A DNA stretch of 64,000 nt from contig NZ_JASKLR010000005.1 in NCBI RefSeq assembly GCF_030124325.1, positions 1-64,000 of the forward strand, read 5' to 3'. The notes beneath the pieces are model-generated. The model made no database searches, was not told the origin of the DNA, and was given only the letters and a program-made list of their open reading frames with translations. Below are positions 35,503-40,466 of this stretch, one piece after another. Positions within the stretch are counted from its first letter, which is position 1, and every line of letters begins with the position of its first letter. Origin of the DNA: Sinorhizobium sp. 8-89 (GTDB taxonomy: Bacteria; Pseudomonadota; Alphaproteobacteria; Rhizobiales; Rhizobiaceae). Position numbers and translations under genes: made by a program.

Positions 35503-36021
35503 ATGAACGGACTTGAGAACGAGGCCGCGGACGGCCATTTCGAACCCCTGCTCCAAGTCGAGATGGCGATGGGAACGTTTCTTTCGGATTGGCACAACTG
35601 CGACCAGCTGTCGACTTTCATGGCGCGAATGATCAGCCACAATCGAACGGATCCTATTCGGCATTCGAATTTCTTTTCATTCGCCCTCAATGAACTCCTG
35701 GAGGTGTCATTCCGTGGCGGTTCTCTCGACGGGCGGATTGGCTGCGCCGTCTATCGACACGGTCCCATGGAACGGGTGAAGCTCACCTTTCCCTGCCCGC
35801 CGGGCCAGAGACAGTTCTATCGAGAAGCGGTCTCGAAGACCCGAAGAGGAAATGCCTACGCGCGCTATATCGATGCCATTTCGACCGATCTCGCTCCGAG
35901 CAGGGAGGCCGTCCTGCTCGATCTGGCGATCAATTTCGATGCCCGGCTTCGGCTGGAGGAAAGCGATCCTCCGCAAATAACGATTGTCATCGACCTGCCT
36001 CTGGAAGGAATCGTGAGTTGA
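35503..36021 (+). CDS. SiaB/slr1658-like HATPase protein without visible G box
   Basis: A 172-residue protein resembling serine-kinase anti-sigma-like ATPases. SFALNELLEVSFRGG matches the N box (NExxE), and the last strand ITIVIDLPLEG fits the domain end. Where the related protein at 39555 has the glycine-rich lid (GSGLGL), this one has SREAVLLDLAINFDARL. ATP binding is therefore doubtful, and it may be a pseudokinase or scaffold. A strong GGAGG precedes the start. Its stop overlaps the next start (TTGA), so it is the first gene of a coupled operon. Confidence 0.7.
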   Translation: MNGLENEAADGHFEPLLQVEMAMGTFLSDWHNCDQLSTFMARMISHNRTDPIRHSNFFSFALNELLEVSFRGGSLDGRIGCAVYRHGPMERVKLTFPCPPGQRQFYREAVSKTRRGNAYARYIDAISTDLAPSREAVLLDLAINFDARLRLEESDPPQITIVIDLPLEGIVS

Positions 36022-37193
36022 GTACGACAGCCCTTTCGCCCTTCAACGTGGAATTCGACCCGAACAGCCAGGAGTTTTCTCTTTCGGGAGTGATCCGGCC
36101 GCGCTCGGTCGATGAAATCGCGGCGAGCATTTCAACGCTCAAGGGCGCAATCGATCAGGTGCGAGGCGTCCTCTACATCAACGTAAAACGCCTGGTTCAG
36201 ATGAACAACACGGCCTTTCACGCTTTCGCACGTGTCGTTCTCGATGCCTGTCGTGAAAGATCGGATCTCCGCTTCGTGGTGGTAACGTCGAGCGTCGTGG
36301 GCTGGACCGAACGCATGTTCGGGCACCTGAACAAGATCGAACCGCAGGTCACTGTCGAGGTCTATGATTCCAAGTTCTATCCCGGCCAGAGCTTCGTGGA
36401 GAACGCGAGTTTCATTCCGATACTGCGGACGCAGACGAAAATGACCTGGCGCCACGAGCGCGCCATTCTCCCTCGTCACGGCATCCGCCCCGGAATGGTG
36501 ATGGCGGACATCTGCTGCGGCATCGGCGATTTCGCCATGCTTGTGCGCAAGGAGTTCCAGCCAGCACGAATCGTCGCCCTGGACCATTCGAAGGCAAGCC
36601 TTGCCTATGCGCGCGACGTGGCGGCAGGGTTCGGCATCACCGATATCGAATACACTTACGGCGATGCTTCGGAGATGTTGCTCGAGGACAACCAATTCGA
36701 CTTCGTGACCTGCCGTCATTCGCTGCAGATCTTCAACCAGCCGGACGTGCTCTTGAAAGAGCTTTACCGGATCTGCAAGCCCGGCGGGCGAGTGTACATG
36801 ACCAATGAAAAGAACTCGCACTGCCTCGGCGAGCCGCGATCACAGAGCATCCAGTGGACCTACGAGGAGGTCGCCAAGCTGTTCGGCCATTTCGAGATGG
36901 ACGTCGAGCTCGGGCCTAAGAGCCGGCGTTATCTCGCCGAAGCTGGCTTCGACGACATCGTCGTCGAATCGTTCATGGTCACCAACCTCGATGGAGATCC
37001 GCAGGACTTCGCCGACATCATCGCTGCCTGGGAGAACGTCTATGCTGGCGAAATGGCCGTGAAGCGCGGTGATCCTCCCGAGTTCATTGAACGTTTCCGT
37101 CAGGGGTTCCGGGACCACATTTTCGCTGCGCTCCACCCGAAGGGTTACGCCGGCTGGCCGATCTGGGCCGCGTCAGGACGCAAACCGCTATGA
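36018..37193 (+). CDS. STAS-like domain fused to a SAM methyltransferase
   Basis: A 391-residue protein. Residues about 10-118 form a STAS-like domain related to the free one at 40128 (GVLYINVKRLVQMNNTAFHA, then DLRFVVVTSS). The phospho-serine position of SpoIIAA (second Ser of SSG) is occupied by Thr65. Residues about 140-390 are a class I methyltransferase with motif I DICCGIGDF (164-172), acidic LDHSKASLAYAR, and FDFVTCRHSLQIF and LYRICKPGGRVYM. The start is TTG inside the previous stop, and the end overlaps the phosphatase ATG. The substrate is unknown; control by phosphorylation is inferred from the neighbours. Confidence 0.82.
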   Translation: MSTTALSPFNVEFDPNSQEFSLSGVIRPRSVDEIAASISTLKGAIDQVRGVLYINVKRLVQMNNTAFHAFARVVLDACRERSDLRFVVVTSSVVGWTERMFGHLNKIEPQVTVEVYDSKFYPGQSFVENASFIPILRTQTKMTWRHERAILPRHGIRPGMVMADICCGIGDFAMLVRKEFQPARIVALDHSKASLAYARDVAAGFGITDIEYTYGDASEMLLEDNQFDFVTCRHSLQIFNQPDVLLKELYRICKPGGRVYMTNEKNSHCLGEPRSQSIQWTYEEVAKLFGHFEMDVELGPKSRRYLAEAGFDDIVVESFMVTNLDGDPQDFADIIAAWENVYAGEMAVKRGDPPEFIERFRQGFRDHIFAALHPKGYAGWPIWAASGRKPL

Positions 37194-40112: not shown

Positions 40113-40127
40113 TGGGCAGCAAAAAAT

Positions 40128-40466
40128 ATGGAAATCAACGAAGACGAATATCGCGTTTGGTCGGAAGGCAAGGACATCTATTTCGATGGCACGATGCGCC
40201 TGCCCAGCACCGAGGCCTATGCCCCGATTTTCTCCTTGGTGATGAGCGTCCTCGAGACTGAGCCGGATCGCATGACCGTCGATCTCACGGGATTGCAGTT
40301 TCTCAATTCATCCGGAATCAACCTGCTTGCGAAGCTCACGATCGAGGCGCGCAAGCGGCCGAACATCCAATTCACGGTCCGCGGAAGCTCAGAGTTTCCC
40401 TGGCAATCGAAGTCTCTGCCAAACCTCAAGAAGCTGCATCCGGGCGTCGATCTCAGGCTGGGCTGA
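40128..40466 (+). CDS. Free STAS-like (slr1659-type) switch protein
   Basis: A 112-residue single domain. [20 protein letters not shown] is the STAS core; Ser62, next to Gly63, aligns with the phosphorylated Ser58 of Spo[24 protein letters not shown] and LHPGVDLRL complete the fold. It is the last gene of the operon. It probably alternates between phospho and non-phospho forms under the HATPase and the PP2C protein; the downstream target is not known. Confidence 0.8.

What the first reader, a model, noticed from the sequence alone, without database searches (positions are those of the whole stretch)
35503..40466. Five-gene partner switch with two HATPase-like and two STAS-like proteins
The operon holds a membrane PP2C phosphatase, one HATPase with intact N and G boxes, one that seems to lack the G box, a free STAS-like protein with Ser62 at the phospho site, and a STAS-like domain fused to a methyltransferase. 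No sigma factor is nearby, so the output is probably not classical anti-sigma control. The overlapping starts imply fixed stoichiometry. Compared with SiaABCD, the added methyltransferase arm and second kinase-like protein are new.
Basis: partly seen in the sequence, partly recalled or inferred. Interest (0 to 1): 0.85.

Follow-up and report, generated by a model that had tools for sequence, protein, structure and literature searches.

The report
Rhizobial bgrSTUWV partner-switch operon
These five genes are very probably the Sinorhizobium copy of a published switch that uses protein phosphorylation to control a c-di-GMP enzyme and surface sugars; what stands out is a second pair of parts, a kinase-like protein without kinase motifs and a methyltransferase.

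Summary
Observation confirmed: five co-directional genes at 35503-40466 encode a SiaB/slr1658-type protein without kinase motifs, a STAS-methyltransferase, a membrane SpoIIE/PP2C phosphatase, an intact slr1658-type kinase and an slr1659-type STAS protein with Ser62. The output is therefore very probably c-di-GMP. The Bgr paper itself was not held; I saw passages of papers citing it.

Added here: the BgrS protein lacks the N-box Asn in 81 of 81 sequences; the STAS of BgrT has Thr or Ala at the phosphosite (Val, Leu or Ile where a second PP2C replaces bgrR), never Ser. So 'two kinases, two substrates' is not supported. Three baits hit the same 22 of 199 family genomes; all 80 kept loci (of 127) hold the five genes in order. 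In 12 of 12 readable loci without bgrR a divergent second PP2C stands there instead. The methyltransferase is core, the cyclase exchangeable. How BgrS-BgrT works is open.

The parts
33755..35437 (+). GGDEF-EAL protein (560 aa), likely BgrR orthologue; output enzyme of the switch
   Evidence: Pfam GGDEF 153 bits, EAL 236 bits; AGDEF motif in 79 of 79 aligned; directly upstream of gene 1 in 77 of 80 loci, gap 36-358 nt
35503..36021 (+). BgrS-like pseudokinase (172 aa), SiaB/SpoIIAB-like fold without N-box Asn (residue 68, codon 35704-35706) or G box
   Evidence: weak slr1658_superfam; hhalign to gene 4 family 94%, E 1.2e-7; model pLDDT 86.5, best PDB hits SiaB 6kko then SpoIIAB 1til; Asn absent in 81 of 81
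36018..37193 (+). BgrT-like STAS-methyltransferase (391 aa): STAS about residues 9-112, class I SAM methyltransferase about 135-391; phosphosite position is Thr65 (codon 36210-36212)
   Evidence: STAS related to gene 5 family, hhalign 95%, E 1.8e-8; D164 G168 G170 D189 D216 invariant in the 12 aligned (their role in SAM binding is recalled); site 65 T60 A19 V1 L1
37190..39550 (+). BgrU-like membrane sensor phosphatase (786 aa): sensor region, HAMP, SpoIIE-type PP2C; membrane segments judged by eye
   Evidence: Pfam HAMP and SpoIIE over cut-off, dCache_1 below cut-off; NCBIfam SiaA 130 bits of 700; the only SpoIIE match at E 1e-5 in this genome and in the genome of S. meliloti locus L026
39555..40112 (+). 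BgrW-like kinase (185 aa), slr1658 superfamily, intact N box (NELIENA) and SGLGL G box
   Evidence: slr1658_superfam 170 bits, cut-off 100; N74 in 81 of 81
40128..40466 (+). BgrV-like STAS phosphoprotein (112 aa), Ser62 (codon 40311-40313) in NSSGIN
   Evidence: slr1659_superfam 134 bits, cut-off 100; S62 in 81 of 81
40555..41736 (-). AraC-type regulator, CuxR-like, convergent with the operon; neighbour, not part of the core
   Evidence: HTH_18 over cut-off; a homologue of at least 35% identity lies in the fetched locus in 36 of 80 loci, 19 downstream and 17 upstream; the name CuxR is by position and recall
42060..45942 (+). two sugar-nucleotide epimerase-type genes and a family 2 glycosyltransferase; probable polysaccharide genes, neighbour
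   Evidence: Pfam on the first and third; the middle one (43106-44092) named by eye; the same block follows the CuxR-like gene on S. meliloti 2011 pSymB

Best explanation
This is the orthologue of the S. meliloti bgrRSTUWV operon, a partner switch whose reported target is the cyclase BgrR. Core loop (reported for S. meliloti by others, inferred here by orthology): the membrane phosphatase BgrU responds to an unknown signal; kinase BgrW phosphorylates BgrV, presumably at Ser62, and BgrU removes the phosphate; the state of BgrV sets BgrR activity and so c-di-GMP for surface polysaccharides (mixed-linkage glucan; perhaps also the neighbouring CuxR-type genes). Second arm (inferred here, odds about 0.4): BgrS is a kinase-dead STAS-binding protein that caps the STAS domain of the methyltransferase BgrT without phosphorylating it; unphosphorylated BgrV competes for BgrS and frees BgrT, so that one phosphorylation throws two outputs, a cyclase and a methyltransferase whose substrate is unknown.
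For: Order cyclase-S-T-PP2C-kinase-STAS matches R-S-T-U-W-V; the same six genes stand in this order on S. meliloti 2011 pSymB, followed by the CuxR-like gene and sugar genes, and on S. meliloti RCAM1115 plasmid p_2. A SpoIIE match occurs once in this genome and once in an S. meliloti genome, so BgrU can hardly be another gene. Passages: BgrU/BgrW set the phosphorylation of BgrV and hence BgrR activity (PMC7647112); BgrSTUWV modulates BgrR (PMC8457831); c-di-GMP acts on BgsA and CuxR in S. meliloti (PMC9495663). bgsA/bgsB-like genes lie in 18 of 80 loci, named by GT2/HlyD matches and recall. For the second arm: BgrS related to BgrW and folded like SiaB of the SiaB-SiaC complex; Asn lost in 81 of 81, yet N63, E64 and E67 kept in 81 of 81; BgrS and BgrT frames overlap in 79 of 80; in 26 thinned loci BgrS distances covary separately with the BgrT STAS (0.51) and with BgrV (0.43), those two not with each other (-0.11).
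Against: Baena et al. 2019 is not held, and a library search for SMb20447 to SMb20452 found no paper, so identity rests on order, uniqueness and recall. In the covariation test the expected kinase-substrate pair BgrW-BgrV scores 0.03, and two of the highest values are between neighbouring segments (0.51, 0.65), so it is weak and may reflect recombination; in the unthinned 89 loci BgrS-BgrV is only 0.10. No complex was predicted. Thr65 of BgrT could be phosphorylated where present (61 of 89). In the plasmid collection BgrT is in 120 records and BgrW in 118 rhizobial ones; the difference was not examined.
Confidence: 0.85

Rival explanations
1. One reading: two working kinases each phosphorylate one STAS partner, the PP2C reverses both, and the methyltransferase arm is a phospho-controlled output.
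For: Two HATPase-like and two STAS-like proteins are present and related pairwise; Thr at the BgrT site in 61 of 89 loci.
Against: BgrS lacks the N-box Asn in 81 of 81 (V56 L14 I7 M2 T2) and in 11 of 11 further readable loci (T or I), and has no G box; the BgrT site is A, V, L or I in 28 of 89, never Ser.
Confidence: 0.08
2. BgrS-BgrT is a permanent scaffold or upstream sensor complex, stressosome-like, that tunes BgrW/BgrU rather than being an output; the methyltransferase fold senses or uses SAM as an input.
For: Pseudokinase and a STAS without a conserved phosphosite suggest a static pair; BgrT STAS distances covary with BgrW (0.36) in thinned loci.
Against: The methyltransferase domain is the slowest of seven domains measured in the five genes (mean distance 0.22 against 0.32-0.90) with motif residues invariant in 12 aligned, which suits an enzyme with a fixed substrate.
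Confidence: 0.25
3. BgrS and BgrT are a separate enzyme pair (a methyltransferase with a chaperone-like partner) that merely shares the operon with the switch.
For: No direct evidence links BgrT to BgrR; nothing is known here of the substrate.
Against: BgrS and the BgrT STAS are relatives of the switch proteins; BgrS, BgrT and BgrW were found in the same 22 of 199 genomes, none apart; gene order kept in 80 of 80.
Confidence: 0.15

Closest known systems
S. meliloti BgrRSTUWV partner switch (Baena et al. 2019; not held, seen as passages in citing papers)
   Same: Same kinds and order of genes as read off the letters R, S, T, U, W, V and the passages; S. meliloti has this six-gene cluster and one SpoIIE phosphatase
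   Different: No difference found in the window. The passages read say nothing on the roles of BgrS and BgrT; lineages without bgrR and with a second PP2C are described here
Pseudomonas aeruginosa SiaABCD
   Same: PP2C phosphatase, SiaB-type kinase, STAS-like phosphoprotein, cyclase output (passages); the BgrS model's best PDB hit is SiaB
   Different: SiaC is a DUF1987 protein with Thr68 (passages); here an slr1659-type Ser62 protein, an extra pseudokinase and STAS-methyltransferase, and a cyclase with an EAL domain
Cyanobacterial slr1658/slr1659 pair (NCBIfam superfamilies)
   Same: Kinase and STAS proteins score over both superfamily cut-offs; a plain pair lies on a Kovacikia plasmid
   Different: By eye, the Kovacikia pair stands beside SulP-type genes, and I saw no PP2C, pseudokinase or methyltransferase among ORFs of 90 aa or more at 3000-14000 of that locus
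Bacillus SpoIIAA/SpoIIAB and Rsb switches (recalled)
   Same: Bergerat-fold kinase, STAS phosphosite, PP2C; the BgrS model also hits SpoIIAB
   Different: No sigma-70 gene in the window; output probably enzymatic

Membership tests
bgrRSTUWV operon | six genes in order cyclase, S, T, phosphatase, kinase, STAS | tested here: met
   same order on S. meliloti 2011 pSymB
bgrRSTUWV operon | BgrU is the PP2C of S. meliloti | tested here: met
   one SpoIIE match in each of two genomes, this one and S. meliloti L026's
bgrRSTUWV operon | locus tags of the published genes | tested here: inconclusive
   paper not held; no paper with SMb20447-SMb20452 in the library; SMb20447 for BgrR is recalled
bgrRSTUWV operon | BgrV phosphorylation controls BgrR activity | not testable with these tools
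   reported for S. meliloti in PMC7647112 and PMC8457831 passages
slr1658/slr1659 superfamilies (genes 4 and 5) | score over the NCBIfam cut-off of 100 bits | tested here: met
   170 and 134 bits
slr1658 superfamily (gene 1) | score over the cut-off | tested here: not met
   26.7 bits of 100; distant relative by profile
SiaABCD | SiaA, SiaB and SiaD NCBIfam cut-offs | tested here: not met
   SiaA 130 of 700, SiaB 17.8 of 85, SiaD 105 of 290: works like it, not a member
GHKL Ser kinase (gene 1) | N-box Asn and G-box glycines (motif roles recalled) | tested here: not met

The most novel reading that the evidence does not exclude
A dead-pair partner switch: a pseudokinase and a STAS domain without a conserved phosphosite form the output pair, and the phosphorylatable STAS protein of the live pair switches a methyltransferase on by competing for the pseudokinase. 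The five genes are the constant core; the cyclase (in most rhizobia) or a second cytosolic PP2C (in other lineages) is an interchangeable addition. It would be the first STAS-controlled methyltransferase output known to me (recall; one search, listed 4 papers, none opened, none on this by title or abstract start).
Probability: 0.3. Interest if true: 0.75.

Novelty: already known. Interest (0 to 1): 0.4.

Why it matters
It turns a candidate new system into a published one and names what is still open in it: why the copies keep a pseudokinase and a conserved methyltransferase, and what is methylated. If the second arm works as proposed, one phosphorylation event would control both c-di-GMP and a methylation, and the pair would show how a switch gains a new output by duplication and loss of catalysis.

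Tried and rejected
Sigma-factor output: no sigma-70 region 2 match in the window; sigma-54 not searched. Gene 1-gene 2 fusions as direct evidence of partnership: none in 80 loci. Identifying the methyltransferase substrate: sequence and fold matches are to varied class I methyltransferases (3mgg, LahSB, phosphoethanolamine methyltransferases); no inference drawn; the model is moderate (pLDDT 79.5, pTM 0.65). Direction of the cyclase/second-PP2C exchange: the unrooted tree of 36 sequences puts the ten second-PP2C rows together, with low ultrafast-bootstrap support of 77, and does not say which came first; L036, which has no adjacent co-directional cyclase, was labelled with the cyclase group there. 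Covariation of distances: its expected positive pair failed. Solved relatives of the kinase and STAS families by sequence: only weak hits. Literature on slr1658/slr1659: 4 papers listed, none opened. Rfam at gathering score and ARAGORN found nothing in the window. Class and phylum samples with BgrT: 4 of 385 and 6 of 299 genomes; only the top few candidates per genome were scored, so distant relatives could be missed. With family NF047703, 12 of 289 class genomes match at E 0.001 but only 3 over the cut-off; the other nine are weak partial matches and were not followed.

Full report
What is there. Gene 1 (H1, 35503-36021) is a distant slr1658-type protein, gene 2 (SM, 36018-37193) a STAS domain fused to a class I methyltransferase, gene 3 (PP, 37190-39550) a HAMP-SpoIIE phosphatase with an N-terminal sensor region, gene 4 (H2, 39555-40112) an slr1658-superfamily kinase, gene 5 (ST, 40128-40466) an slr1659-superfamily STAS protein. 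Downstream lie a convergent AraC-type gene and a polysaccharide-type cluster. No sigma-70 region 2 match is in the window. The best match to gene 2 in the genome collection is from Sinorhizobium psoraleae, 99%.

What it is. A passage in PMC8457831 names a BgrSTUWV partner switch that modulates the cyclase BgrR in S. [quoted passage not shown] of both papers I saw passages only. Both cite Baena et al. 2019, which is not held. The order cyclase, H1, SM, phosphatase, kinase, STAS matches R, S, T, U, W, V; the same order is on S. meliloti 2011 pSymB and on RCAM1115 plasmid p_2; and SpoIIE matches occur once in this genome and once in the genome of S. meliloti locus L026. I therefore file the operon as bgrRSTUWV. 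That BgrR is SMb20447 is recalled; a library search for SMb20447 to SMb20452 found no paper.

How firm the set is. BgrT, the slr1658 family (BgrW) and a BgrS profile, used as three separate baits on 199 family genomes, hit the same 22 and no others. Of 127 relatives of BgrT in the genome collection the tool kept 80; all 80 have the five genes in order. In a class sample 4 of 385 genomes have BgrT, our own and three of one other family; in a class sample of 289 the slr1658 family passes its cut-off in 3, our own and two of that other family, with nine more weak partial matches. The plasmid collection gives 120 records with BgrT and 119 with BgrW, one of these a cyanobacterium with a plain kinase-STAS pair; the two-record difference among rhizobia was not examined.

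The exchangeable part. The GGDEF-EAL gene directly precedes the five in 77 of 80 loci; the exceptions are L036 (a related gene on the other strand nearby), L095 and L103. In the 22 family genomes it is present in 15. In the other 7, in three genomes of the second family, and in L095 and L103, 12 loci with distinct sequences, a divergent cytosolic SpoIIE phosphatase takes its place in 12 of 12; no match to it was found in the other 78 collection loci, some of which are cut short (two of these phosphatases checked by Pfam). On a tree of 36 sequences ten such rows fall together with weak support, 77, unrooted. The methyltransferase is thus part of the constant core.

The dead pair. In 81 sequences BgrS has V, L, I, M or T where the kinase has its invariant N-box Asn, while N63, E64 and E67 are invariant; the G-box region of the kinase aligns to a stretch without those glycines. 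Eleven of 11 further readable loci have T or I there. The BgrS model (pLDDT 86.5) matches SiaB of the SiaB-SiaC complex first and SpoIIAB next, at modest TM of 0.50-0.62. The BgrT STAS has T (60), A (19), V (1) or L (1) at the phosphosite in 81; with eight further loci it is T or A in all 80 without the second phosphatase and V, I or L in all 9 with it. So Ser was never seen there and 28 of 89 have a residue that cannot be phosphorylated. The methyltransferase domain is the slowest of the seven domains measured in the five genes and BgrS the fastest (mean distances 0.22 and 0.90).

How it probably works. Core loop, reported elsewhere for S. meliloti: BgrW phosphorylates BgrV, BgrU removes the phosphate, BgrV state sets BgrR. 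The sign (unphosphorylated BgrV inhibiting BgrR) is recalled, not read. bgsA/bgsB-like genes in 18 of 80 loci and a CuxR-like gene in 36 of 80 fit a c-di-GMP output for surface polysaccharides; a passage in PMC9495663 says that c-di-GMP acts on BgsA and CuxR in S. meliloti. In this genome the bgsA-like gene is on another contig. Second arm, inferred: BgrS holds the BgrT STAS without phosphorylating it, and unphosphorylated BgrV competes. A distance-covariation test in 26 thinned loci links BgrS to both STAS domains separately (0.51 and 0.43) but scores BgrW-BgrV, the expected pair, at 0.03, and in all 89 loci gives BgrS-BgrV 0.10, so I give it little weight.

Verdict. Observation confirmed, interpretation partly right, system very probably already published. 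What remains open and testable is the BgrS-BgrT arm. Searches of the held library listed no paper whose title or abstract start describes BgrS/BgrT roles or a STAS-methyltransferase switch (20 of 522 listed, 15 of 22, 4 of 4), but the primary paper was out of reach.

Noticed in passing
L106 15486-16004; orthologue of window 35503-36021: A public S. meliloti record names the BgrS-like protein 'ubiquinone biosynthesis methyltransferase UbiE'; the window protein has no Pfam match and a SiaB-like fold, so the name is probably wrong.
   Followed up: partly
L095 6259-7194 and L121 5616-6578: Divergent cytosolic SpoIIE phosphatase in place of the cyclase in 12 of 12 readable loci lacking it.
   Followed up: yes
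L095 1161-5124: Genes left of the second phosphatase in Roseibium look like type VI secretion tssA/tssB/tssC by eye; no family search was run.
   Followed up: no
L036 and L029 (both Ensifer aridi LMR001): One strain carries two copies of the five-gene set; the copy in L036 has no adjacent co-directional cyclase but bgsA/bgsB-like genes downstream.
   Followed up: partly
window 36420-38480 (BgrT methyltransferase and BgrU sensor region): These adjacent segments covary with each other (partial correlation 0.62-0.65) more than with the other halves of their own genes, as if exchanged as one recombination block.
   Followed up: partly
window 29842-33700 against L025 2169-5368: The nearest relative, S. 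psoraleae, has bgsA/bgsB-like genes left of the cyclase; the window has a different stretch there (27% positional identity) with a Kup-like transporter ORF by eye, and its own bgsA-like gene lies on contig C82.
   Followed up: partly
window 50390-55659: ORFs with AAA_31, TadE and type II/IV secretion ATPase matches, perhaps a Tad-type pilus cluster.
   Followed up: no
window 58862-61015: Minus-strand CheA-like hybrid protein with Hpt, HATPase_c, CheW and receiver domains.
   Followed up: no
L143 7920-9000: Kovacikia plasmid: kinase-STAS pair flanked by SulP-like transporter genes (judged by eye), a hint that such a pair may act on transporter STAS domains.
   Followed up: no
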